Positions 9,009 to 64,000 of a stretch of 64,000 nt of DNA are shown piece after piece. A program made the translations under genes and the position numbers. Every line of letters starts with the position of its first letter. The stretch's first letter is position 1. The stretch is taken from assembly GCA_033032175.1 (NCBI GenBank), contig CM065331.1:6262370-6326369 (forward strand). Reading direction: 5' to 3'. The stretch comes from Saturnia japonica (lineage: Eukaryota > Arthropoda > Insecta > Lepidoptera > Saturniidae). Below the pieces are notes generated by a model, which ran no database searches, had not been told where the DNA came from, and was given only the letters and a program-made list of their open reading frames with translations.

Positions 9009-9401
9009 AACAACAAAAAACAATTTTTAACAAAAAAGAATATCAACTTCAATTATTTTGAAGAATTTCCTTCAATTCACTTCAATTCAAATTCAAAGTC
9101 CAATGCCAACTAAATTTAAAATTTAGTATACATTGAAGTATCCTCTATCCAACAAAAATAGAATCATCCAAATCGGTGTATAAACAAAGAAGTTATAGCC
9201 GGACGTCCATAAAAATATATACATTCGAATTGAATAACCTACCGTCTTTTGTTGAGGGTTGTTTAAAAGCAACCAATTAGGTCTTGCCTCCTACCTGATT
9301 ACTTGAACTGAAAATATAATTTATATCGAAATACTATGAAAATAAAAGATAAATAAAAGATAGAATATTTTATTAATTGTTATTAATATAAATCCTTATT
9401 A
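9009..9401. repeat. Interspersed repeat remnant
   Basis: The 9050-9250 part (ccaacaaaaatagaatcatc, then 'aagttatagccggacgtccataaa') matches a repeat also seen near 20.9-21.05 kb and 60.0-60.15 kb. It is likely a Helitron- or LINE-type tail. There is no gene. Confidence 0.4.
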
Positions 9402-9407
9402 TTTATT
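9402..9407 (-). promoter_or_regulatory. Polyadenylation signal of the protease-inhibitor gene
   Basis: AATAAA on the minus strand lies about 125 nt beyond the stop codon at 9529-9531. Between them is a phrase (aatgccttaggcattaagtc) that I recall as recurrent near transcript 3' ends in Lepidoptera. Confidence 0.55.
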
Positions 9408-9528: not shown

Positions 9529-9646
9529 TCAGCCACTAATGCAAGTTTTCTTACATTCAGCTTTGGTCTCGAAATTGTTGGAGTTACCTCCACAACCACC
9601 ATATGTGAAGAGTTCACACTTTTTCGTTTCCGTATTATATCCATAC
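9529..9646 (-). CDS. Inhibitor exon 5: C-terminal half of the Kunitz domain and stop
   Basis: The acceptor is ttatcttttcacag. The exon completes the Arg codon and encodes [20 protein letters not shown], then [18 protein letters not shown] and TGA. It holds four of the six Kunitz cysteines with normal spacing and the hallmark YGGC and NNF motifs. Confidence 0.9.
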
Positions 9647-12600
9647 CTGTGAAAAGATAACTTTGAAATACATTTTTTTTTTAGCTTCATTTCAGTTTTA
9701 ATGTAATCTTATAAGACTACAAACTTCAAATCTCTCCAATGAACATGTGTGTGAAGGACAACATCGCGATGAAATCATAGAATGGTTGTAGGGTATTTTG
9801 TAATGACCGCCTGGCAAGTTGAAAATCTATTGCCGAGCACATTTATGTGCGTTTCAGCAGCTGCACTTAAAAGCCCGATTCCTCACTAAAAGTGTCATAA
9901 TCTTGGGCGACATCGTCACTTAAAATCAGGTGAAATTGTTGCCATAACGAAAAAAAAAAATATTATAAGGGTGCAAAAAGATAAGTTTATAAAATCAAGA
10001 TCAAATTGAAAATCAAAATCAAAAAACCTCCAATTGATAGTTCGTGATCACTTCTAACTTATAATATACTTAATTACCTGGTTATATTTGCGTCACATTT
10101 TCCCGCAACAATTGGTTTTAAACATTGCGATGGGGGCTCTGAAAATTATATAGAATGCTTATTTATATTATATGTTTCTTTTAATTCGCGATGGTCGAAT
10201 ATTAGGAATAATGGAATAACAATATAGTGTTCCCCGATTACAAAGTTGACAAACAAGCGGACGGCCCTCCTGATGGTAACAGGTTACCATAGCCTATGAA
10301 GGTTCGTAACACATACCTATCACGCCTGTATTCCCCGAAGGGTTAGGCAGAGGTGTACTAATTGTACACCCACAATTCGCCGAGTATGTTTTTTGGTCCC
10401 ATGTAATGGGGGCGAGCCTATTTACCATTAATCGGGCACGAAACCAAACTCCGAACTGCTACTGAGAATTTCATAGGAAAAACCCAATAACACTTTGCTC
10501 GACCAGGGATTCGAACCCAGGACCTCGCTCATAGCAGTCGCGCTCACGACCACTAGGCTAATGAGGCTAACGTAACACCAGAGGTACAACTTAAGCGTTT
10601 CTGACATTGAATGATCATTCCCCAATAAGCTCTGAACTCCCTACTCACCGCGGGAACACAATATAACTATTTAGCTGCAATTTTCTGTAGGGCGGAGGTC
10701 TTGAAGGTATTTCACCGGTCGTGATGCACCAAGTAGAAAAAAACTCTTAAATTAAAAACTTCCCTTAGCCCTACCTACTTCTTTTAAAAATGTCGTTTAA
10801 CGATGAACATCTTGAGAAATACACTGTACAATACAATACAATACAATACAATACAATACAATACAATGTAAAATATTACAATTGTACAAATGTACAAACT
10901 GACACAACTGATGCCATGCGTTTCAATCAATAGCTTCGGTGCCCTCAAGCGAAAGCGGGCACTGATGCATTGGATCTAAACAGGTTTTAATACTTTCAAA
11001 AATTTTGTAGCTATCATCATCATGATCAAAAAATCAATGTCGACTCAGTGGTGGCGTCAATCTATGTGAGTTCGAATCCCTGCAATGAGCCTAAGTTTTT
11101 ATGTTATGACTTACTAGGACATGCCATCTTGGTACACTCAGCATGTCCAGACGTGCACGAGCAAGTGTTGCAATCATCCTTCCACGTCGTGCCCGGAGCA
11201 CAAGTCCTATACGGATCTGGAAATAACCACATCTATATTATTATTAGCTTATAAAAATTGGAAACCTTTTCTCCATTAATTCGTATCTTATTTCTGCTGA
11301 ACCAATCTGAGCATACATAAACGCAGCTACTCTCCTCAGAGCTCAGTCAGAATGTTCTCGAAACGATAAATAATGTTAAGGAACATTCCATCAAAAATTA
11401 TTTCGCTTCGCGTGTTTTTTTAATCGTTCGCTTAAAGGGAATGGAGTTTTTAGGGTGTTACCAGTCACTATTGAGTTCGGTTGACCAGTAAGGTAAATAG
11501 TTGAGTATTGTGAGAGACACATTGGTCACAAAAGTGTTAAAGTTTTGCTATTTTTAATGCAAATTTGAAGACGATTTCAATGGAGTTTCGAAAATTTCTA
11601 TTATAGGCATTACGGAGCAGTGTTTACTAGTTACTTACGTTAAGCTTGTAACTAAGTCAGTGTTCATTCTATACGTTGGTTAGATCTAAGAGCCAAATGT
11701 CCAGGAACATTAGACATGTTTTGTTATATGCATATTTTTAGTTTTGGATTGTATTTAGTATATTTTGGAACACATTGGTGTTGATTATGGTTTAGGTTGA
11801 TAGAGGTTTGGTCTCCGATTATAACGCTATCTCTCATTAAATGGTAAGGTTACATGATCCAATTTAGTTGGTAATCCAACCTAAAATTTACAGGGTATTT
11901 TGCTTACGATCCATCCCACTGAGTATAAAGTGTCAATAGGTGTTCCTTTGGGTACCTCAGATCCCTGCTTAGTAGCAACCTCAATACAATGTGTTTCTCC
12001 GTCACTTCATATTGTCTTGGCATATTCATATTCATATTGAATCAAGATTTGGCGATAGCGCGGCGATAACTCTAAATGGATTTTCATTTCATATTTGATC
12101 GCAAATATGTCACTAATTGCTATAATGGACAGTGTAGGTTCAGTAACAAATGCGCTGTCAGAAAGGTCTATTGTGTTTGAGTCAAGGGTCCTGCAAATAA
12201 GGATTCCGACAACGCTGCTTACAACAAGCCACCAAATCATTTCAGAGGGCTTACAATAGAACGAATATCCAGTGCGTCATCCGTTTTCACCAGAAACTAG
12301 TGGAGCATCCGACTACATATTGAAGCTATATAGTAGAATCTAGCCAAATCCGTATGCTGAAGTAGGTATGGTATGGCTGTAGTATCATATTGGCAAATAG
12401 TATTAAAAAAATACTTAGCATTAGTTTTCCTTTGGCTGTCGCTCTCTGGCCAAAATCCTGTCTACCCACATGATTTAGGACTAGTTGATGTATTTCGCTT
12501 AAGTTGCTTAGCGATAATTTTATACTTGACTCTTATAGTATTTGACAACCCTTTGAAAAGTAATAGATTGTTAATTTAATATGCTTAAAAAAATAACATA

Positions 12601-15600
12601 CCATGTTCATCTCCTACACACATTGCACGAGTGCACCCTGGCTTTCCATCAATAGTACACATGCAATTGTTGCATTGGCTTCTCCAAGAGCTCCCAGGTT
12701 TACATAGCTTACCAGACGGGAACCCGGCCTCCTTCGGAACTGAAAATAATTTCATCGTCAAAATTATTTTAACATCTATGGTATATATCCAGAAAATTTT
12801 AATATTTGATAAATTCTTGACGAAAACAAGAAAAGAAGTATTATACGCAAGGATATAATAGTAAAGTCTGTCTCTTTAATTATTGTTCCTCAAAAGTGTT
12901 TTTTTTTTTGTACCAACACTTTATCTCCTTTAATTCTTCATCATAATTAACTTTTCCAATATCATTTTAAAGGTTAAATTAATTAATTTGTTAATTCCAC
13001 GCTATTAACATTACATTGATAAATACTTTAAAACCAACACGCAGATGCGCTATCTATGAACTAACTCTATATTTAACCAACATTTCAGCCGATACATTGT
13101 TTACATTTTTTAATAATATGCGAAATACACGCTAGTAACTCAATTTTATTTCTTTTGAGTTCTATTTCTCTTTCTTTTTATTTCCACGAGAGCAATTACG
13201 ATATTGCATATTATTTTCTCGATAGCTTCTAGTGATCACTCCTCGAATGCAGAGTAAAATTTAGACAGTTCTTTAATTTAGTAAGACAGATCGTGGATCC
13301 CAATAGTTTGCAACGGAATACCTGTACAGCGACGAACTAAATTGAAGAATGATCGCGAACAAAAAGTAAAAGCAATTGTATGAAACAGTTGACTAATGAT
13401 GATATTGGCATAAAAACGATAGCAGTCAATTTGGATATTCTATGGTTAAAGAACGTAGATAATATCTGTAAGACGTCAAGTGAGATTTGACGTTAAAAGG
13501 CAAGAAATTCAAAATACATTTAAAATTGCTCATTTAAGCCGCATAAAAAAAATTGCAAAACAAATACAAAATTCATTTATAAAGTTGCTTACTTATACTA
13601 TATTGCTATATTATATTATATAATAAACCGGAAAAGTATTTTATTTGTCGGTTTCTTTATGATTATGTTTATGATTAATCCTTTTTGTGTATGATGAGTA
13701 GGGCCCGGATTAATATGTAAATACATATTTTTAATTTACACGATTTTCGTTCTGCAATGAATTCTCTACATCAATTATCGTGTTTGGATCGTTGAAAAAA
13801 AAATTTTTATTTTCCATATTTTTGCATATTTGAAGAATAAGTACATATTTTAGAAAAAAATATCACAATCATCCATATTTTCAATAAAAATATCATAGAA
13901 CATGAATCAGTTCACAAAAATAGGTATAATTTGTAGGTGTTTGCATTTGGCGCTACTACATGGCCGCGTGGCGCTCTCTCGTGTCGACCGTATATAGGTT
14001 TTTGCGTTTCATTCTGCATTCCCTGTCCCCGCCACCCGCGCTGGCTAGTACCGCGGTGCGGGGGGAGGACACTCGTCAGTCGTTAGTCCGCAGTCGTCCG
14101 TCGCTCAGTAAGGCTAAGGCGACGAATCTATATTCTATACGTACGTGCCGTGTTGAGCTGCTTGCATTGTATTTTTACGTACTCACCTACTACTACTGTC
14201 TACCAATTTAATTTATCATGCCTAAGGATAAACAACCATTGCGGTTAAAATTGAAAAAATATATTGAAGATTTTCCAAGCCAATCGCTAAGTACAGACGG
14301 AAAAGTACTATATTGTAATGTCTGTGAAAAATCTATTTCGTCTGAGCAGCGTTTTTAATATCGCAACATGTATCTACTGCAAAACATAAGGCAAATAATA
14401 CGAGGAAGAATAAATTCAACAACAATTTTTTACTGATGCAATGGCAAGTACTTCTCAAAGTTGTACTTTCTCGAATGAATTGTGTTATGCTATGATATGT
14501 GCGGACATACCTTTATGGAAATTAAACAATCCGACATAAAAATTTCTTAGAAAAATACTCAGGCAAACGTATTCCCAATGAATCCACACTTAGAAAAAAA
14601 TATAATACGTAAGCAATATTTATGAAGATTGTTTAGCTAAAATTCGTGAAGATATACAAGATGGCCCCATATGGGTTGCAATAGATGAAACTACAGACGC
14701 ACAACGTCGTTGCATAGGAAACGTGATTATCGGACGTCTATTTGAAGACAGACCCAGCAAATCCTATTTATTGGCGTTTGAAGAACTTCCGAAATGTAAC
14801 CACCAGACATCAGCAAAGCTTTTTAATGATGCTATGAGTGATTTGTGGCCTGATAGAGTTAAACATGAACGAGTTTTCTTGTTACTTACTGATGCTGCTC
14901 CATATATGGTGAAAGCTGCAGAGGCTCTTAAAGTTTTATATACTAAAATGATTCACGTAACCTGCTTGGCACATGGTGTAAATAGGTTAGCCGAATGCAT
15001 AAGGTTCCAGTTTAAAAATGTTGATAGTTTGGTATCAAATGTGAAGAAAATCTTTCTAAAAGCACCGAGCAGGATCTCCAAATTTAAAGAGATGTATCCC
15101 GGAATACCTTTGCCACCAGAGCCAGTGCTGACACGCTGGGGTACATGGCTAACAGCGGTTTATTACTACGCCGAGCATTTTAATGAAATTAGAACAATTA
15201 TATCTCAATTGGATGACGATTCTGCAAGTATTTTAGACTCAAAAGAATTTCTTCAAGATGAGACTCTCTATAACGATTTGGTCTACATAAAAAGCAATTA
15301 TTGCTTTTTAACACACAAGTTACAAGCATTAGAAAATCCTTCAACACCATTGAATGAAAACCTAAAGATTATTGAAGAAATTGAAAAAAAAGTTTCTGAA
15401 GCGGAAGGCCCCGTTGCTGAAGTGGCTAAACAAAAACTAAAGCATGTTTTGGAAAAAAATAAAGGATTTAATACACTAAAAGAAATTAACAAAATGCTGT
15501 GCGGTAGTTTTGATGGCACTGTAGACGTGGCTTACACGGTTCCCGAATTATGCAGGTTTATGTATGCTCCAGTCACATCATGCGACGTGGAAAGATCATT

Positions 15601-18600
15601 CAGCCAATATAAAGCTATATTTAGACCAAATCGTCAGAGTTTTAATTTTGAAAATTTAAAGATGCACGTTATTGTGTACTGCAACCAATTTAATAAAGCA
15701 AATGTAGGGGAAGTTGAATAAAACTATTTGATTAATTATTTTACTGTTATTTTACTATTACAACAGTAAATAATTTTTCTCAATAAAGAATGTTTGAAAT
15801 GAAACGTATACTCAATATTTTTTCCATATTTTTGATTTTTTGGTCCATATTATATGTACATATTTTTTATTTTTTAGTACATATTAATCCGGGCCCTAAT
15901 GATGAGGAATAGTAAGTATTGCCTATCTATAATTAGACTACAACTCTCAATTAGCCTTAAATATTGATTTTTGTTAAGTAAACCGGAAGTGGAAGCTTTC
16001 CTTGCAGGTTAAACATGTCGGGTATTCTGATTTTCTTGAGAAAATTACATGTTCAGTACTTTCCTTTATTTTCTTTAAGCTATGAATATTTAGGTGTCCC
16101 ATTCTTTGGTTCCATAGGTAAAAATCTTATTCTTCAATATCGGGCATGCATGCATAAGCTTTTCCAGCTATATTAATCCGGTACATGCTGTTGACAATAT
16201 TAGCAGTTGCTACTATCTGATTTTTATTATTCATAATAATACAGCTTGTTTTATCTAATTTTACTTGACCACCACTTTTGATAGTAAGACATACGGATAG
16301 TAGATTGGATTGCAATAACTGTATCATTATATATATCTAACTTCACTCGTCCCAAGCATTGCGCAGACAAATCTTTATTGTTTGTCATTCTTATGTTCTG
16401 CATGATAGAAGTAATCTGTTTTTAAAGTAGACTCCTATGCTTAATCATGTGTGGAAATGCACCAGAACTCACATAACGAGCATATTCTTGGGTGGAAGTC
16501 GCTACAGACACAGCAGCATAAGACGAATGTTTGATTTTTGTGGTGTATTCTTACATTTAGACATACAGTCTGGTCTTTTATGACCATGTTTATTGAGAGT
16601 GTAGCAGCGTGGACCTTTAGCTGTAAATCTTTTTCTGGTTTTCTAACATCCTGTAATAATTTTTCTTTGACATCATTTCAAGATATTTTTATTCTAGAGC
16701 TTTTAATAGCCATTATCATTAGCTGTTAGGAGTCAGGTAGACCAGAGAGCAGCAGTGTGCTTAGCCATTGACGCTTAAGCCTAACGCTTTTATATTTGCG
16801 GGCGGAACTAATTATTTTTTTCACAAATTCCTCTACATTTTGACATTTAGTTAACGTGGTGTTACTGAGATGACGCAGCAAACAAACTCAGTGTATCAAC
16901 CTCGACTCGTCAATACCGGGAAACAAGCTTTAAAATTATATGTGAATCATTAGTTGTGATGAAGACTAAAGGGAGATATGGTGTCGTCACAAAAAACATC
17001 TTTGAGAAATAATATATAGTATCCAACTAAACTCATCAAAGAAGTCTAAGCAACATGTACTAATTTAAATTTTAGGATGGTTCTTCACATTATAACGTTG
17101 TATTTTATTTTTAAAATAATATCTTTGGGTTCTATGATGTAAAAATAACAGCTGTTGTCTTTAACTAAACTTTTTTCTTACAAAATGAAATTTCTAAAGA
17201 AAATATATTTATTGTGAAAGAATAGAACAATTTAATACAAAGTATGGGCTCCTCTGCTATTCAGAACTTGTCGGCAACGATTATTCATTGAATTAATGAG
17301 ACTGTTTATGTCATCTTGCGGTATTTGCCCCCAATGGAATTGTAGCAAATCCTTCAGCTGTTGGGTTGTTGTCGCTCCGTCCAAGTCTTTCAAAACACCT
17401 CCATGGAGCATGTCCCATGCGTGCTCGATGGGGTTGAGATCTGGCGATTGTGCAGGCCAGTGCAATACCCGGATGTTCTCTGTTGCAAAGTATTCAGTGG
17501 TTCGCCGAGCTCTATGTGAACGCGCATTGTCATGCATTAACCTAAAATCGGAGCCAAAGGTTTATGCAAATGGGTAGACATAATAATAATAATAATGGTA
17601 GACATAGGTCTTAGAATATCTTCAATGTAATTTTCAGCATTAATGTTTCCATTTACAAAAACGAGCTCAGTTCGCCTGTTCTTCATAATACCCGCCCATA
17701 ACATAACTGTTGAGCCGCTGTATGGATGAACTTCCTGAACACACCTGAGCCTTTCAGTATTTCCGGGCCGACGATACACTCGCACCCTTCTTGTATCAGG
17801 CTTAAACCCGAATCGCGACTCATCGGAAAACATAATTTTATCCCATTGTTCCTGGGTCTATGTTATGCGTTCTCTACACCATTTATATCGACGAGCGCGA
17901 TTCCCGTGACGTATCGGTGGGCACCTGATTGGGCGTCGAGCTCGTAGGCCGTACTCATGCAGTCGATTTCGTACAGTTTGAGGACTTACATCAACACCAC
18001 TTGAAATTTGTAGCCTCAAACTTATCTCTCGAGCGGTTAACATCGGCTGGCGTCTTGCAGTCAGTTGTATGTACCGGTCTTGCCGAGTGGTTGTACTCAT
18101 TTTACGGCCTGGATGCTGTTCAGCGGGTTCTCCTGTATTATTGTAGCGCTGCCAAAGACGACAAATAACACTTCTATGAATGACAAAATGTCGAGATACC
18201 TGAGATTGATTACTTCCCGCTTGCAATATCCCTACAGCTCTTTGCATTTCATCTGCCATCAAATGACGTCGCTTCATGACGTAAAGAATATCTAACAATT
18301 CAATTTTGTCGCTAACTTTATTTAAATGGTTGGTAAAATTATAATATCAAGACTAAACGTAGCAATTAAAACGCACTTAAATTCAAAAAAATTCGCAGTC
18401 ATTTGAATTTTATGAAAAAACAAAACATAATCAAATATTTTTTTTTACAACCAGCCAGTATGTCAATAATAACAAAAAAGTTTACTTACCTACGCACTTT
18501 GTTTGAGTAAATATTTAGAAATTAATTAATACAAATGGAAAAATTTGTAATATTACGCATGTTGCTTAGATTTTTTTGATGTGTGTACATTATGATATGT

Positions 18601-18726
18601 ATGAAATATTTGAGAATCACCTCAGTCTAAATAATATAAAAATGAAATAAATAAAAATAGTTTATTACCTTCAGCACTACAAATAACAGCGGTGAGAACA
18701 ATTAATAAAACCACAAATTTCGACAT
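9529..18726 (-). CDS. Secreted two-pacifastin plus Kunitz protease inhibitor (5 exons)
   Basis: The spliced CDS is the minus strand of 18669-18726, 12602-12739, 11115-11216, 10078-10138 and 9529-9646: 477 nt, 158 residues. All introns are GT-AG; phases are 1,1,1,2 and match at every junction. Residues 1-18 are a signal peptide ([18 protein letters not shown]). Residues 32-60 and 71-98 are pacifastin domains with the array C-x9-CN-x-C-x-C-x(2-3)-G-x3-CT-x3-C. Residues 105-155 are a complete Kunitz domain (six Cys, YGGCGGN, NNF). By family knowledge the pacifastin P1 residues are R57 and K95, suggesting trypsin-like targets; the Kunitz P1 is D115, which is unusual. There are 18 cysteines, so nine disulfides are expected. 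The likely role is secreted inhibition of serine proteases (immunity, cuticle or silk); the target is unknown. Additional exons in the 5.9-kb intron 1 cannot be excluded, though phases need none. Confidence 0.85.
9740..9960 (+). mobile_element. SINE family B body in intron 4 of the inhibitor gene
   Basis: It contains the phrases aaggacaacatcgcgatga, gcaagttgaaaatctattgc and aaatcaggtgaaattgttgc followed by a poly-A run. These match the 3' two thirds of the full-length copy at 50466-50787. Confidence 0.7.
10078..10138 (-). CDS. Inhibitor exon 4: N-terminal half of the Kunitz domain
   Basis: The acceptor is ataattttcag and the donor is AG|gtaatt. The 61-nt exon encodes [19 protein letters not shown] plus the first two bases of an Arg codon. 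The spacing C-x8-C and the GKC.A.I.R pattern align with BPTI residues 5-20. The residue after the second Cys (P1) is Asp. Confidence 0.85.
10258..10740 (+). repeat. Interspersed repeat family E, split by a SINE
   Basis: The left part (acggccctcctgatggtaac, tagcctatgaagg) ends at 10312. The right part resumes at about 10571 (cgtaacaccaga, then ctccctactcaccgcgggaa, tattctgtaggg-like and ttcaccggtcg). Other copies are near 26.3, 30.2, 40.5 and 46.5 kb. It has no coding potential. Confidence 0.7.
10313..10570 (-). mobile_element. tRNA-derived SINE family A with 8-bp target duplication
   Basis: The 258-bp insertion sits between two copies of cgtaacac (10305-10312 and 10571-10578) inside repeat family E. 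The minus strand has the tRNA-like head with B box gggttcgaatccctggtcga and the family A body. The duplication and the interrupted host repeat show retroposition directly. Confidence 0.85.
10827..10868 (+). repeat. Pentanucleotide microsatellite (acaat)n
   Basis: About eight perfect units of acaat lie in intron 3 of the inhibitor gene. Confidence 0.95.
11046..11104 (+). mobile_element. SINE family B head fragment beside exon 3 donor
   Basis: It contains gtgagttcgaatccctgcaa, the B-box region of SINE B, and 'gagcctaagttttt'. It ends about 10 bp from the exon 3 splice donor at 11114. Confidence 0.65.
11115..11216 (-). CDS. Inhibitor exon 3: second pacifastin domain
   Basis: The acceptor is ggttatttccag and the donor is A|gtaagt. 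The exon is 102 nt and again symmetric phase 1. It encodes [22 protein letters not shown] and CTKMACP. The predicted P1 is Lys. A SINE fragment begins about 10 bp beyond the donor. Confidence 0.87.
11881..12240 (-). pseudogene. Unrecognised secreted-type frame with one in-frame stop
   Basis: From ATG at 12240 the frame encodes a hydrophobic N-terminus ([17 protein letters not shown]), then a 60-residue segment including [23 protein letters not shown] at 12007-12009 interrupts it. Reading on in the same frame gives 41 further sense codons ([35 protein letters not shown]) before TAG at 11881. I do not recognise the family. It could be a decayed secreted or envelope-like protein, or an exon with chance extension. 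It lies within intron 2 of the inhibitor gene on the same strand. Confidence 0.3.
12241..12601. other. Intron 2 remainder, unassigned
   Basis: It includes a 68-codon plus-strand frame (12373-12579) with no recognisable motif. I see nothing else. Confidence 0.35.
12602..12739 (-). CDS. Inhibitor exon 2: first pacifastin domain
   Basis: The acceptor is attattttcag and the donor is G|gtatgt. The exon is 138 nt, phase 1 on both sides, so it is a symmetric shuffling unit. It encodes [16 protein letters not shown], a TIDGKPG linker and CTRAMC. The Arg after CT is the predicted reactive-site P1. Confidence 0.85.
12740..13690. other. Left part of intron 1, unassigned
   Basis: AT-rich sequence lies between exon 2 and the hAT element. 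I looked for CNxCxC or Kunitz-like patterns on both strands and found none. Confidence 0.4.
13699..15898 (+). mobile_element. hAT DNA transposon, 2,200 bp, with 8-bp target duplication
   Basis: The ends are inverted repeats: tagggcccggattaatatgt at the left and acatattaatccgggcccta at the right. They are flanked on both sides by atgatgag (13691-13698 and 15899-15906), the 8-bp duplication typical of hAT elements. The perfect duplication suggests a fairly recent insertion. The element carries one broken transposase gene on the plus strand and sits in intron 1 of the inhibitor gene, antisense to it. Confidence 0.95.
14218..15721 (+). pseudogene. hAT transposase, CGGBP1/BED-type N-terminus, broken
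   Basis: ATG at 14218 begins a BED-like zinc-finger segment ([16 protein letters not shown]) that hits a stop at once because a base is missing in a T run near 14350. Further frameshifts and stops follow up to 14605. From about 14606 to the TAA at 15721 the frame is open for 370 codons. The catalytic core is present: [10 protein letters not shown] (first Asp), [10 protein letters not shown] (second Asp), [14 protein letters not shown], and [18 protein letters not shown] (the Glu and the hAT dimerisation signature). The layout, with a short zinc finger and then a compact hAT core, resembles the family that gave rise to vertebrate CGGBP1. Full activity is unlikely because the DNA-binding part is disrupted; internal initiation would give a core lacking it. 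Confidence 0.85.
16127..16725 (-). pseudogene. Ty1/Copia retrotransposon gag-pol remnant
   Basis: The minus strand first gives a zinc-knuckle-like [14 protein letters not shown], in which the second Cys of CCHC is replaced by Leu. After stops it gives [27 protein letters not shown] and [15 protein letters not shown], the Gag-pre-integrase segment of Copia elements (usual phrase NLLSV....F...C.I). No LTRs are visible. It lies in intron 1 of the inhibitor gene. Confidence 0.65.
17030..18585 (-). mobile_element. Tc1-like DNA transposon (DD34E)
   Basis: Terminal inverted repeats match over about 40 bp: catcaaagaagtctaagcaa at 17034 and the inverted partner ending ttgcttagatttttttgatg at 18582. 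Both ends are flanked by TA (17028-17029 and 18586-18587), the Tc1/mariner target. The 1.56-kb element encodes one broken transposase on the minus strand. Its right end lies 83 bp from the splice donor of inhibitor exon 1. Confidence 0.85.
17232..18298 (-). pseudogene. Tc1-like transposase, broken
   Basis: The N-terminal 146 codons (18298 to 17858) hold the paired-type helix-turn-helix region ([20 protein letters not shown], then [19 protein letters not shown]). A TAG at 17858 interrupts the frame just before the catalytic part. Without a frame change the frame resumes as [13 protein letters not shown] (first Asp), with [13 protein letters not shown] following. A (taa)n expansion near 17580-17595, flanked by a duplicated ggtagaca, breaks the frame a second time. 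The final part holds LMHDNARSH (second Asp) and [12 protein letters not shown] (Glu); 34 residues separate them, hence DD34E. It ends at a natural stop at 17232. Confidence 0.88.
18669..18726 (-). CDS. Inhibitor exon 1: start codon and signal peptide
   Basis: ATG at 18724-18726 is preceded by aagaa. The 19 codons encode a hydrophobic leader ending CSAE. The donor is G|gtaata at 18668, phase 1. The right end of the Tc1-like element lies only 83 bp into the following intron. Confidence 0.75.
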
Positions 18727-18894
18727 TTCTTATTATGTTGTGGTCGAAACACAAAAAAATATCGAATACACATGTATACTACAGTCAAGTCATTTAAATA
18801 AATATTCTTATCAAAGAAATACTTAATTAACTTACACTTTATATTAAACATAAAAATATTATCAGAAGTTAATAAACCAAGATAATGTATATCT

Positions 18895-26790: not shown

Positions 26791-26796
26791 TTTATT
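26791..26796 (-). promoter_or_regulatory. AATAAA overlapping the stop codon of the MICOS-like gene
   Basis: On the minus strand the last codon and stop read AAA TAA and continue AAT, so AATAAA spans the stop. It is the only canonical signal I see close downstream. If used, the 3' UTR would be only about 10-30 nt. Confidence 0.4.
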
Positions 26797-27592
26797 TCGG
26801 TGGGCACACGTTAGCTTTTCTAGGTTTAGGTGGTGATGGCAGATCATCCCTGCAAGGCAGCCGTTCCCTTAAAGTAAATTCTTTTCCACATGTCGAATTG
26901 TATACCGCTATAGCCAACTTCCCACCATGGTAAATAAATCCTCTAAACGCTTCATCAGTCTCCTTGGGAAAGCATAACGCACCTGCTGCCAAAGTCCCGA
27001 GACTCGTGAAAAATAGACGACGTGGTATCCCTTTTCCTGATCCAAGGTAGTAACCAGTCACTCCTCCAAAAACTACCATGGCTTGCCTCAAAATCAAGTT
27101 ATCAGAATGTCTCATAAACTTCTTAAAATTGTTCTTATTCTCCTTCAATGAATTACATATTTCATTTTTCATCCCACGTATCTCACATTTCATCTCGCAG
27201 TACGAGGTTTGGGTTGACCTTCTTAAAGAACAGACGTATGGGAAGAGGTATTCATGAATTAATTTGGTATTGACTTTAGGACACTTATCTTTATCGGCTA
27301 AATAATCTTTATATTCATAATGTGGACTTTTGTACAGAGGTAGGTCTGTGTATTTCATTGGCGGAGGTTTCTCTGGTGGCGTCGGAGTATTTGCTGCCTC
27401 GACAGAAGGTATCAAGCACAATTTAGCACCAATCAGAATTGCTTTTAGAGCATTTATCCAAAGTCTACCGAGCACATAAAAGTCACCATAGCAGAGTCTT
27501 GTTAGGGACTTTTTCATTTCATCTTTCGATGCGAATATTTCTTCTTCATCATCTCCATTTGTGTTTGCCGATGCTTCTATTTCTAATGGCAT
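26792..27592 (-). CDS. MICOS MIC26/MIC27 (apolipoprotein O)-like protein, intronless
   Basis: This is an uninterrupted 266-codon frame from ATG at 27592 (context ataaaATGcc, A at -3) to TAA at 26792. An acidic N-terminus precedes a hydrophobic segment at about residues 48-65 (ALKAILIGAKLCLIPSVEAA), which resembles the N-terminal membrane or presequence region of the family. A Pro-rich linker and the phrase DLPLYKSPHYEYKDYL (83-98) match the LP.Y..P motif. Residues 168-209 carry the family core: a Gly-rich membrane span (GGVTGYYLGSGKG), then RRLFFTSLGTLAAGALCFP. The family shapes mitochondrial cristae junctions in the inner membrane. The assignment is by motif only. The Cys-rich middle (103-146) and Cys/Pro-rich tail are atypical, and the lack of introns suggests a retrocopy or divergent paralogue. 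Confidence 0.65.
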   Translation of the reverse strand: MPLEIEASANTNGDDEEEIFASKDEMKKSLTRLCYGDFYVLGRLWINALKAILIGAKLCLIPSVEAANTPTPPEKPPPMKYTDLPLYKSPHYEYKDYLADKDKCPKVNTKLIHEYLFPYVCSLRRSTQTSYCEMKCEIRGMKNEICNSLKENKNNFKKFMRHSDNLILRQAMVVFGGVTGYYLGSGKGIPRRLFFTSLGTLAAGALCFPKETDEAFRGFIYHGGKLAIAVYNSTCGKEFTLRERLPCRDDLPSPPKPRKANVCPPK

Positions 27593-27989
27593 TTTATTAT
27601 TTTATATTTCATTGTGATTTGAAATGTTTACGATTAATTTTGACAATGACGTATCATTTGGAAAATGACAGTACGTTTTAAAAAGAGTTCTAGGTTGTTA
27701 ATTTTTTTCTATAAATATTAACTTTTTGTTTTGGCAATTGCAAAAGTGCAAGCATCAGACGCATTTTGTTGACTTTTTTAAAATCCTGTTCATTGCACTC
27801 TTGAAGAAACTTCTATATAAGTGTCATTGAAAAACCTCAGCAAGAAGCTCATTCTACATTCGGAGCGTTCGTGGCAGTAAATTCTCCTGAAACCGTATAG
27901 ATTTTAATATATCATGTTGAACACAACCCATTATAAAAACGAAAGAACGCACAAGGAGACGAAGTCTTATTCTCTGGAAATTTCTTTCT

Positions 27990-61204: not shown

Positions 61205-64000
61205 TCGCTTTTTTTTTTTTTTAATTGGGCCCTTAGGGGCCCTATCCAAAAACAGAGCCGCTGCGGCTTTTACAGCTTCACCGAACTTGGGGGCGAGCGC
61301 TTAGGGCACTCAGCCGCGAAAGTTTTTGACGACTCGCACGAGGGTGCCAGAGTGGCCGAACCTCGGCTCAGGCGGTCGTCGCGAATGCGAAAAGGTCGCG
61401 ATCTAACTAATTCCCTACTCCTACAAATTCGAGCTAACTAATATATACTCATATGCACGTTCCCTTCCTCCTGGGAGGAAGGAAGGAACCGTGCGTATGT
61501 GTATTCAATAATCGGAATGTTTCTACACTAACTAGCGCTAACTAACTAGCGTAAAAAAAGAAAAAAAAAGGTCCCTCACAGAACCTATGTACCTGTGTGG
61601 TGTGCACGTGTGTATGTTCATACGTGTGTAGTGTTGTATGTAGGTAGCTAAGTGATGCACGTACAGTGTCACTTGTATCGCGCGGGCGGTTGCCTGACCC
61701 AAGGGTTTCACACAGAGGAACGGACCTAGGCTTGGGTTACCGCTAGAGAGGGTGGACGTGACGGGTGTGCTGGAGCGAAATTGACCGCCCGCCCTCTGCG
61801 GAGAGAACGGTGGTTTCGCGGGCGTGGGCGCTGGCACGCTCTGTTTGGAGAGACGGATGTGTAATATTTATTCGAATTTTCGATGTGATCGTCGGGATCA
61901 ATAAAAATATTGCGCGGCCGGCGTTTGCACCGGATGTCCGTGGGTGCCGGAACATAAGTGGCGGCTGTTTTTATTAACGGATTCGCGTGGTTCGACGCGG
62001 TGTCGAAATACGAACGGGAGAGCTGTTTAACGTAGGCATGTATCGAAGGAAGCTCCATATCTCTATGGAGATCTACGCTTCGAACATACCACGGGGCCCC
62101 GGTGAGACGATAGAGGAACCTATTCTGTATCGATTGTAACCGTTTGAAACTCGACTCGGACATATGTGCGAACACGGCGCAACTGTATGTCAAAATTGGT
62201 CGAATACACGTCTTGTAGAGCGTGAGCTTATGTCGCGTGGACATTTTACTCACCGAACACAACAGAGGATGCAACCGGCCCAGGACCCACGCGGCCCTGT
62301 TCCTAACCTTACGGATGTGGGGTCTAAAAGAGAGCCTACTATCTAGGGTTACCCCTAGATATTTGGTCTCTCTTACATACGGAATCGGATTATCATAGAG
62401 CTTAACAGGTTTAAGCTTCCACGGTATCTGTGACGAATCCGCATCGAAGAGCATCGCGGCGCTCTTCGAGGGATTAACGGCTATACGCCACTCGTTAAAC
62501 CACTTCCCGAGAGTGGTCACGGAGCGTTGGACTTTGTGTCTGAGGTGGGATCTATTCCTATCTGAGGCATATAAGACTGTATCGTCAGCGTATAGCCCTA
62601 CCTCGACCTCCGGGAGTCGAGGTAGGTCACTGACGTACAGGTTAAATAGGCTAGGAGCCAGGATCGAACCTTGGGGAACGCCTGAGCGTATTGGACGGGG
62701 CGTGGACAATTCACCTTCCACTCTATAGCGAAAGGTGCGATCTGTTAGATAGTCGCGAATTATTTTAATTAGCCTATCGGGGATTTCAAAGTGATACAAC
62801 TTGTAGATCAATCCCTCGTGCCAGACCTTATCGAAGGCCTTGGCAACGTCGAAAAAGACCGCAAGTGTACGGCGGGGTTTATATAATTCAGCAAAATTAA
62901 ATGCAACGTGCTCCGTGAGGCGGTGCACTTGATGAGTGCAAGAATATCTAGCACGGAAACCGAATTGCTCAGGCGGATAGAGGTCTTTTTCCTCTATTAC
63001 TGACTTTAGACGGTTCAGAAGGATCCGCTCGTACATTTTCCCTAAAGTATTTAGGAGACTGATCGGGCGATAGCTGTCGGGAAGCGACGCGCTCTTGCCG
63101 GGCTTACGGATACCTATGACTATGGCCTTTTTCCAGGCGGCTGGAAAATGGCAGTGGGCTATGGCTACATTGAAGATGCAGACCAAAAGAGCTATGAGGC
63201 GATCGGGAAGAAGTCTAAGTACTTCATTCCTGATCCCGTCGGGACCTGGTGCTTTTCTAAGCTTAAGGCTTTTTATAATGGAAAGAACCTCCTCAGACGT
63301 GACTGGGGACAGGGAGTCTGTCGCGGGGAGCTTATCCAGCTCCCGCACGCATCCATCGATACCCTCGACCCGGTCGGTATTTGCATCGACACTGTTCGGA
63401 GAGCACTGGCTCTCCAAACAAGTGGCGAGGCACTCCGCCTTGTCGCTGCTATCGAAGGCGAGCGGTATACCGGGACCCCTCTCGAGGGGGGGCATAAGAT
63501 AAGAAGCCTCTATTTTGAGGCTGTGAGCTAATTTCCAGTAAGCCAGATGCGACGGCCTTAGCCCTTCGACGAGGGCGTCCCATCTGTGACTTCTGAGTTC
63601 TAATATACGGGCTCTAACCGATCTTTGAAGTGCGCGTAAACGTGCGCGGTTTTCCTCGGTCGGATAGTGGTCGTGGGCACGAGTCGCCGCGTTCTTTTCC
63701 GTCAACAACGCCCGCACGTCGGCAGGGAGTACGAAGCGGCGATCGCTCGCCTCTTCGACCTCTCTCGAGGCCTCTCCGATGCCGGCCTGCAGGTGGTCGA
63801 CCAGGGAATCGATCGCGAGATCTACGTCCGCAACGGACCCCAATACGTCCGGGATCCTATCTAAGCTGGACGAGGACGGCCTGTCCGCAAGATAATGTTT
63901 TAGCTTGGCATAGTCAACCACTTGGACCGAAGGAGGGCTAGAGTCGTCTGGTTGACCTAGCTGCATGATGACCGGACGGTGGTCGGAGTCGAGCTCGTGT
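61205..64000 (-). mobile_element. Jockey-type LINE, apparently recent, 5' end beyond window
   Basis: The 3' end is a 14-base poly-T (61209-61222; poly-A on the minus strand), followed by about 500 bp of 3' UTR and then ORF2. The reading frame is open throughout. Truncated relatives lie at 53.4-54.1, 6.2 and 20.1 kb. The sequence is much more GC-rich than the surroundings. Confidence 0.92.
61726..64000 (-). CDS. LINE ORF2: endonuclease end and reverse transcriptase (partial)
   Basis: The frame is open for at least 757 codons from the window edge to the stop at 61726. The edge shows DSDHRPVIM, the last motif of an APE-type endonuclease, so the true start lies outside; the Met at 63966 is internal. 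The reverse transcriptase follows: KLRKAPGPDGIRNEVL, DSYRPISLLNTLGKMYERIL, FFDVAKAFDKVWHEGLIYKL (palm Asp, near 62830), SGVPQGSILAPSLFNLY and LYADDTVLYAS (catalytic Asp pair, near 62585), then ETKYLGVTLDSRLSF. The C-terminal region includes PWYVRSVDLHRDMELPSIHA. There are no stops or frameshifts in the visible part, so this copy may be active if its 5' half is intact. It acts in target-primed reverse transcription of its own RNA. Confidence 0.93.
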   Translation of the reverse strand, partial: HELDSDHRPVIMQLGQPDDSSPPSVQVVDYAKLKHYLADRPSSSSLDRIPDVLGSVADVDLAIDSLVDHLQAGIGEASREVEEASDRRFVLPADVRALLTEKNAATRAHDHYPTEENRARLRALQRSVRARILELRSHRWDALVEGLRPSHLAYWKLAHSLKIEASYLMPPLERGPGIPLAFDSSDKAECLATCLESQCSPNSVDANTDRVEGIDGCVRELDKLPATDSLSPVTSEEVLSIIKSLKLRKAPGPDGIRNEVLRLLPDRLIALLVCIFNVAIAHCHFPAAWKKAIVIGIRKPGKSASLPDSYRPISLLNTLGKMYERILLNRLKSVIEEKDLYPPEQFGFRARYSCTHQVHRLTEHVAFNFAELYKPRRTLAVFFDVAKAFDKVWHEGLIYKLYHFEIPDRLIKIIRDYLTDRTFRYRVEGELSTPRPIRSGVPQGSILAPSLFNLYVSDLPRLPEVEVGLYADDTVLYASDRNRSHLRHKVQRSVTTLGKWFNEWRIAVNPSKSAAMLFDADSSQIPWKLKPVKLYDNPIPYVRETKYLGVTLDSRLSFRPHIRKVRNRAAWVLGRLHPLLCSVSKMSTRHKLTLYKTCIRPILTYSCAVFAHMSESSFKRLQSIQNRFLYRLTGAPWYVRSVDLHRDMELPSIHAYVKQLSRSYFDTASNHANPLIKTAATYVPAPTDIRCKRRPRNIFIDPDDHIENSNKYYTSVSPNRACQRPRPRNHRSLRRGRAVNFAPAHPSRPPSLAVTQA

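What the first reader, a model, noticed from the sequence alone, without database searches (positions are those of the whole stretch)
9529..18726. Split gene for a signal peptide + pacifastin + pacifastin + Kunitz inhibitor
Seen: five short minus-strand exons with good GT-AG sites and matching phases (1,1,1,2) give a 158-residue secreted protein with 18 cysteines in exactly the pacifastin (twice) and Kunitz spacings. Family knowledge: pacifastin and Kunitz are two unrelated serine-protease-inhibitor folds. I do not recall this architecture as a standard one. Each pacifastin domain sits on its own symmetric phase-1 exon, which is ideal for exon shuffling. The largest single exon is 138 nt, so ORF-based annotation would miss it.
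Basis: partly seen in the sequence, partly recalled or inferred. Interest (0 to 1): 0.88.

Follow-up and report, generated by a model that had tools for sequence, protein, structure and literature searches.

The report
Pacifastin–Kunitz hybrid inhibitor gene
This is a real five-exon gene, probably from a moth, that joins two unrelated kinds of small protease-inhibitor domain in one secreted protein, and it sits in a large, fast-changing cluster of related genes that combines the same kinds of exon in several ways.

Summary
Five minus-strand exons splice in phases 1,1,1,2 to 158 aa; Pfam finds Pacifastin_I twice (7.7e-22) and Kunitz_BPTI once (5.7e-20). The host genome gives the strongest support: contig C28 holds 70 exon-level matches, four of them the gene's own. 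A second gene, 60 kb away on the opposite strand, has the same five exon sizes and 158 residues; 93 of 158 residues and 19 of 19 cysteines are shared. Four more loci place Kunitz exons after pacifastin exons with no signal exon found between. The cluster also holds arrays without Kunitz and Kunitz-only genes, behind similar signal exons. A 2026 survey reports that 155 of 155 short-loop pacifastin proteins are pacifastin-only (PMC13388995); this gene is a counterexample if the joined mRNA is made. One correction: the Kunitz loop has Asp at P1 and an N-glycosylation sequon at P2', so it is probably no trypsin inhibitor; 11 of 13 cluster Kunitz domains have Arg or Lys there. No transcript was seen; separate pacifastin and Kunitz isoforms remain possible. 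New variant of a known kind.

The parts
18669..18726 (-). Exon 1: start codon and signal peptide [19 protein letters not shown], phase-1 donor
   Evidence: similar exons recur in the cluster
18807..18815 (-). TTTGATAAG, a GATA-type element; exact in 11 of 16 upstream regions of cluster signal exons (TGATAA somewhere in 15 of 16)
   Evidence: alignment; counts and position
18792..18799 (-). Place of the TATA box: ATTTAAAT here; TATATAAA in 10 of 16 upstream regions
12602..12739 (-). Exon 2: pacifastin domain 1 (A type), P1-P1' Arg-Ala, symmetric phase-1 exon
11115..11216 (-). Exon 3: pacifastin domain 2 (B type), P1-P1' Lys-Met, symmetric phase-1 exon
10078..10138 (-). Exon 4: N-terminal part of the Kunitz domain with the reactive loop GKC-Asp115-Ala-Asn117-Ile-Thr; phase 1 in, phase 2 out
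9529..9646 (-). Exon 5: rest of the Kunitz domain and stop codon
9369..9407 (-). Two AATAAA polyadenylation signals (9402-9407 and 9369-9374) after the stop codon
13699..15898 (+). hAT-type DNA transposon in intron 1 (hAT by end and duplication length, recalled): inverted ends TAGGGCCCGG, 8-bp target-site duplication ATGATGAG, ORF matching DUF659
17028..18587 (-). Tc1-like transposon in intron 1 (HTH_Tnp_Tc3_2; DDE_3 below cut-off; broken frame) with 30-nt inverted ends

Best explanation
It is a functional gene for a secreted three-headed mixed-type inhibitor (signal peptide, pacifastin A, pacifastin B, Kunitz) and one member of a tandem cluster. Shown: exons, phases, domains, paralogues, and similar signal exons and upstream regions. 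Inferred: the five exons join in one mRNA. Inferred mechanism: the two pacifastin heads bind trypsin-like proteases as canonical, substrate-like inhibitors through Arg-Ala and Lys-Met reactive bonds. There is no dibasic site between domains, so the protein stays in one piece, unlike most multi-domain insect pacifastins. The Kunitz head, with Asp at P1 and a glycan site at P2', is probably no trypsin inhibitor; it targets some other protease or serves as a stable scaffold. The role is most likely defence against foreign proteases or control of haemolymph proteases (inference from the families). The architecture most likely arose by joining exons within the cluster, where arrays without Kunitz and Kunitz-only genes have similar signal exons and the same phase.
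For: Gene model; Pfam; no other such domain in the window. Paralogue H2, C28:6341165-6347696 on +: exon sizes 58/138/102/61/118, 158 aa, 93 of 158 residues identical, 19 of 19 cysteines kept. 121 of 474 nt differ; as many random changes put into the window CDS gave a mean of 3.9 stops and 9.9 lost cysteines in 2000 runs, no stop in 1.45%, at least 3 cysteines lost in every run. No signal exon found between the last pacifastin exon and the Kunitz exon in 6 of 6 such loci: best signal-like score 18-22, against 41-87 for the signal exons found. Block alpha reads as four pacifastin domains plus Kunitz, 242 aa, if a GTTAGT donor is used. Similar upstream regions. Kunitz dN/dS 0.28-0.41 against 7 of 9 paralogues (dS above 1 in three of these, so rough). 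No dibasic site between domains.
Against: No RNA evidence of any kind. Retaining intron 3 gives a stop after pacifastin 2; 17 of 21 B exons listed have such a stop within 8 codons of the last cysteine. Signal exon to Kunitz splicing is phase-possible, and signal-Kunitz genes exist in the cluster. The TATA position of the window gene departs from the commonest form. dN/dS is 0.84 against H2 as a whole, and for the Kunitz part 0.72 (H2) and 0.83 (H3), so these pairs alone do not show purifying selection. Two ATTAAA (variant signals) lie in intron 3, at 10991 and 10185, and the matching gap of H2 and of alpha, beta and gamma does hold AATAAA. One paper says that Kunitz domains with Asp at P1 can inhibit chymotrypsin (PMC9164257, passages).
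Confidence: 0.72

Rival explanations
1. One locus, two products: alternative splicing or intron retention yields a signal-pacifastin-pacifastin protein and a signal-Kunitz protein, and the 158-aa fusion is rare or absent.
For: The acceptors of exons 2, 3 and 4 are all phase 1. In-frame stop just inside intron 3, seen after 17 of 21 B exons. Signal-Kunitz genes occur in the same cluster. Two B exons carry AATAAA directly after that stop (6152845 and 6178906). Alternative splicing is reported for pacifastin genes of Tribolium and Aedes (PMC2689174, passages).
Against: No AATAAA in intron 3 of the window gene, though two ATTAAA; the exon 3 donor CTAGTAAGT ranks 20 of 561; H2 keeps the same kind of donor and acceptor and the same short linker.
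Confidence: 0.2
2. Two neighbouring genes: a pacifastin gene (exons 1-3) and a separate Kunitz gene (exons 4-5) with an unrecognised first exon.
For: Kunitz-only genes exist in the cluster.
Against: No signal-peptide exon found in introns 2 or 3 nor between B and Kunitz exons in 6 of 6 loci; the six Kunitz-only genes with a signal exon found have one of the same MSK type.
Confidence: 0.06
3. A decaying copy that is no longer expressed.
For: dN/dS of 0.84 against H2, altered TATA position, two transposons in intron 1, unusual P1 Asp; the other Asp case lies in a gene whose signal exon lacks the usual GT donor.
Against: Intact frame, splice sites and all cysteines at 121 of 474 nt difference from H2; Kunitz dN/dS 0.28-0.41 against 7 of 9 paralogues.
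Confidence: 0.06

Closest known systems
Insect pacifastin precursors (MEROPS I19; silkworm BmSPI71-73, Plutella PxSPI58)
   Same: Signal peptide on its own first exon and whole domains on single exons (reported for insects), short-loop six-cysteine motif, Arg or Leu type P1 residues
   Different: Those named are listed with pacifastin domains only; nearly 90% of insect multi-domain ones have dibasic cleavage sites, and this one has none between domains
Kunitz/BPTI inhibitors (MEROPS I2)
   Same: Six-cysteine pattern, YGGCGGN...NNF core
   Different: P1 Asp instead of Lys or Arg, sequon at P2', domain split by a phase-2 intron, attached to pacifastin domains
Mixed-type inhibitors such as silkworm BmSPI56/57 and Plutella PxSPI42/44 (Kunitz with WAP or antistasin)
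   Same: Inhibitor units of more than one family in one protein
   Different: None of these is listed with pacifastin; some are large matrix-type proteins, this is a small three-domain protein
'Ancestral' long-loop pacifastin proteins, whose domain network includes Kunitz and Kazal (PMC13388995)
   Same: Pacifastin together with other inhibitor domains
   Different: Here C1-C2 has 9 residues in both domains, the 'Conventional' class, for which the survey reports 155 of 155 pacifastin-only

Membership tests
Pacifastin I19 (domains 1 and 2) | Six-cysteine motif with C-N-x-C and Pacifastin_I profile match | tested here: met
   (77.2 bits, cut-off 27.9); 16 pacifastin-type chains among the solved structures matched
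Pacifastin I19 (domains 1 and 2) | 'Conventional' class: C1-C2 loop of 9-12 residues | tested here: met
   9 residues in both domains (sequence); class definition PMC13388995, section 5
Pacifastin I19, Conventional class | No domain other than pacifastin in the protein (a survey result, not a formal definition) | tested here: not met
   Kunitz_BPTI on the spliced product; survey statement
Pacifastin I19, insect type | Dibasic cleavage site between domains (nearly 90% of insect multi-domain precursors) | tested here: not met
   KK only at 128 and 152, inside Kunitz; figure from PMC2689174, section 13
Kunitz/BPTI I2 | Six-cysteine Kunitz signature and profile match | tested here: met
   (71.7 bits, cut-off 21)
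Kunitz/BPTI I2, trypsin-inhibiting | Lys or Arg at P1 | tested here: not met
   Asp115; alignments
[quoted passage not shown]
   on the spliced model; definition PMC3278429, passages
Serine protease inhibitor | Inhibits a protease in an assay | not testable with these tools
   needs recombinant protein
Expressed fusion gene | mRNA joining exons 3 and 4 | not testable with these tools
   no transcript data

The most novel reading that the evidence does not exclude
A roughly 400-kb cluster in one insect genome builds pacifastin arrays, Kunitz-only and pacifastin-Kunitz inhibitors from one interchangeable set of phase-1 exons behind copies of one promoter and signal exon. New combinations form by exon joining, and reactive sites change fast, including a Kunitz head re-aimed by P1 Asp at another class of protease. 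This would break the rule that arthropod short-loop pacifastins stand alone.
Probability: 0.4. Interest if true: 0.68.

Novelty: new variant of a known kind. Interest (0 to 1): 0.52.

Why it matters
If the joined mRNA is made, it is a direct counterexample to a published 155-of-155 finding that short-loop pacifastins carry no other domain. The cluster shows related loci with and without the join, with similar signal exons and the same phase, so the making of a mixed inhibitor by exon joining can be followed between close copies. The many reactive-site variants make a natural test set for inhibitor-protease arms races.

Tried and rejected
Chance: rejected by profile E-values, splice phases and the H2 paralogue. 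Further domains in the window: none above noise. Separate signal exon for the Kunitz part: none in introns 2 or 3; three weak candidates in intron 1, none of the MSK type. Relatives in protein and contig collections: the protein search found 4 proteins, all Kunitz matches, and no candidate for the pacifastin part; viral and prokaryote contigs gave none. These collections seem poor in insects, so this says nothing about other moths.

My first reading of the A-B-A-B-Kunitz blocks was that the last pacifastin exon ends in a stop and the Kunitz part is therefore separate. One search showed a GTTAGT donor in the right phase there, so the join is possible, but with a weaker donor. I also first took P1 Asp as unique to the window gene; one search found it in one more Kunitz (6577430), whose signal exon lacks the usual GT donor. 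The signal exon of another Kunitz-only gene (6064326) has a weak donor, GTATAA (read; it did not pass the donor filter).

One pacifastin exon (6164225) is damaged. The Kunitz at 6386013 was left out of the tree because my script failed to join its halves. No N-terminal half was found for the Kunitz hit at 5830697, and neither half by my patterns for 5809094; the hits at 5770950 and 5819196 were not fetched. The arrays that I call pacifastin-only mostly keep a donor after their last B exon, so they may have a last exon that I did not find. Taxon checks by family PF03260 and PF05849, and a profile count by PF05375, got no answer.

Full report
What is there. On the minus strand, five exons (18726-18669, 12739-12602, 11216-11115, 10138-10078, 9646-9529) with GT-AG introns in phases 1,1,1,2 give a 158-residue protein. 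It starts with a signal-peptide-like stretch and has 19 cysteines, one of them (C16) in that stretch. Pfam gives Pacifastin_I at 7.7e-22 with two stretches and Kunitz_BPTI at 5.7e-20; four weaker matches (VWC, FnI_RECK and two more) are below cut-off. The solved chains closest by sequence are, for the pacifastin part, locust and other pacifastin inhibitors, and for the Kunitz part, Kunitz domains of SmCI, boophilin, TFPI, bikunin and BPTI. The window holds no other pacifastin or Kunitz exon above noise.

Is it one gene? Three facts point to a single transcription unit: no alternative signal-peptide exon was found in introns 2 or 3; AATAAA occurs after exon 5 and not in introns 2, 3 or 4; and the phases agree throughout. 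Against this, retaining intron 3 would end the protein at CPSKS* directly after the second pacifastin domain, and intron 3 holds two ATTAAA variants. No transcript data were available.

The host genome. The genome search answered once: the window is G000:C28:6262370-6326369 of a 580-Mb assembly with 402 contigs. The spliced protein has 93 exon-level matches: 70 on C28 (28 like exon 2, 24 like exon 3, 18 Kunitz; four of the 70 are the window gene's own), 2 on C23 (one like exon 2, one like exon 3) and 21 Kunitz-part matches on C1, C7, C11, C17 and C22 (tally recounted). The tool scores only the best candidates, so these are lower bounds. The pacifastin exons on C28 span 6.04-6.43 Mb and the Kunitz exons 5.77-6.59 Mb. 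I fetched parts of this, not all. In 287 kb of it, including the window, profiles found 41 pacifastin exons and 8 Kunitz C-terminal exons at E 1e-3 or better.

The cluster is modular. A recognisable signal exon (MSKFVILLIV...) recurs. Pacifastin exons mostly alternate as A-B pairs. The Kunitz domains extracted are split by the same phase-2 intron (9, H3). Three arrangements occur: signal-(A-B)n with no Kunitz before the next signal exon; signal-Kunitz; and (A-B)n-Kunitz. Of 13 Kunitz genes with both halves found, 6 have a B exon as the nearest upstream element found on the same strand (window gene W, H2, H3, alpha, beta, gamma), 6 have a signal exon (two of these with a weak or missing GT donor), and 1 (6386013) lies behind another Kunitz exon. 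For the six joined loci no signal exon lies in the gap: best signal-like scores are 18-22, while the signal exons found score 41-87 and the gaps of four Kunitz-only genes reach 25 by chance. For H3 no signal exon was found in the fetched upstream sequence; two A-B pairs precede its Kunitz, and its first exon may lie further up.

H2 (6341165-6347696, plus strand, 60 kb from the start codon of W) is a full twin: exon sizes 58, 138, 102, 61 and 118, 158 residues, no gaps. It shares 93 of 158 residues and all 19 cysteines with W; the chance that 65 changed residues would spare 19 given ones is 1.8e-5 by a simple draw. Putting 121 random nucleotide changes, the observed number of 474, into the W coding sequence gave on average 3.9 stops and 9.9 lost cysteines in 2000 runs; 1.45% had no stop, and none kept all cysteines. 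Block alpha reads as signal plus four pacifastin domains plus Kunitz, 242 aa, if the last B exon uses the donor GTTAGT; in alpha, beta and gamma that donor departs from the GTAAGT of W, H2 and H3.

Evolution. dN/dS between W and H2 is 0.84 over 158 codons (dN 0.301, dS 0.357, Nei-Gojobori); for the Kunitz part, W against nine others, it is 0.28-0.41 in seven (dS above 1 in three of them) and 0.72 (H2) and 0.83 (H3). So W, H2 and H3 change fast while their frames and cysteines hold. In a tree of 12 Kunitz rows, W, H2 and H3 group with 99/99 support, and alpha, beta and gamma with 100/100, but apart; the joined state needs two changes on the best tree, 6% of bootstrap trees need one, and one origin is not ruled out. 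Among 23 A and 24 B domains listed the P1-P1' pairs vary: Arg-Ala is commonest in A (10 of 23) and Leu-Met in B (11 of 24); 3 A and 1 B were not read because the profile match stopped short or the domain is damaged. W has Arg-Ala in A but Lys-Met in B.

The Kunitz head. P1 of W is Asp115, and Asn117 of the sequon NIT is at P2' (sequence; sequon; P1 by alignment). Of 13 Kunitz domains in the cluster, 8 have Arg, 3 Lys and 2 Asp at P1. The second Asp case (6577430) has a signal exon without the usual GT donor. Recalled, not from a call: an Asp at P1 of BPTI greatly weakens trypsin binding. One paper states that Kunitz inhibitors with Asp at P1 can inhibit chymotrypsin (PMC9164257, passages), which speaks against calling the head inactive. 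I therefore say only that it is unlikely to be a trypsin inhibitor.

Upstream regions. Sixteen regions before signal exons were aligned. TTTGATAAG is exact in 11 of 16 and TATATAAA is present in 10 of 16. W keeps the first and has ATTTAAAT at the place of the second; the second signal exons of alpha and gamma lack the TATA part; the region 6134 fits poorly. This fits a start of transcription just before exon 1 but does not prove it.

Comparison with print. Surveys list pacifastin proteins without Kunitz: silkworm BmSPI71-73 (PMC3278429, passages), Plutella PxSPI58 (PMC5309989, passages), Pteromalus (PMC5691223, passages), Eocanthecona (PMC10545863, passages). Passages of PMC5673224, PMC4393245, PMC7079503, PMC8371367, PMC7693380 and PMC10308649 showed no protein with both. 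The 2009 family paper says that known precursors share a signal peptide followed by one or more pacifastin domains (PMC2689174, section 13). A 2026 study (PMC13388995, section 5 and passages) shows Kunitz in the domain network of long-loop 'Ancestral' proteins and reports that 100% of 155 short-loop 'Conventional' ones are pacifastin-only. Both domains here have a 9-residue C1-C2 loop, the Conventional class. Searches for pacifastin with Kunitz and Lepidoptera, domain architecture, chimeric, silk, same gene, genome, Spodoptera, for the two Pfam accessions, and for pacifastin with tandem, moth and expansion showed, in listings and the passages read, no insect protein with both. That is not proof of absence: supplements and closed journals were not searched, most listed papers were not opened, and PMC10759296 on three gelechiid moths, which mentions pacifastin three times, was seen in the listing only.

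Verdict. A real gene and, as far as these searches show, a new architecture for this class of pacifastin, best read as an expressed three-headed secreted inhibitor in a fast-evolving, exon-sharing cluster. The missing piece is RNA.

Noticed in passing
13691-15906: hAT-type transposon in intron 1 with exact 8-bp target duplication ATGATGAG and an ORF matching DUF659; the exact duplication suggests a recent insertion.
   Followed up: partly
17028-18587: Tc1-like transposon with 30-nt inverted ends (87% complementary) and a transposase broken over several frames, also in intron 1.
   Followed up: partly
26795-27601 (-): Open frame of 269 aa matching Apolipoprotein O, E 9.6e-8; a probable host gene.
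   Followed up: no
61729-63999 (-): 757-aa open frame with reverse transcriptase (RVT_1, E 4.1e-42), at the window's end; a retroelement.
   Followed up: no
G000:C28 blocks alpha (L030-L031), beta (L029, L007) and gamma (L026, L027): Three closely similar blocks, each with two signal exons 337-377 nt apart, four pacifastin exons and a Kunitz pair; in alpha and gamma the second signal exon lacks the TATA region. Possible two-start genes.
   Followed up: partly
L034 (G000:C23:10212501-10217500): A lone pacifastin A-B exon pair on another contig, no Kunitz seen in the 5 kb fetched; possibly a relative of the cluster's founder.
   Followed up: no
B exons of the cluster; intron 3 start at 11114 in the window: 17 of 21 B exons have an in-frame stop within 8 codons of the last cysteine, just inside the following intron, which would allow a pacifastin-only product by intron retention.
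   Followed up: partly
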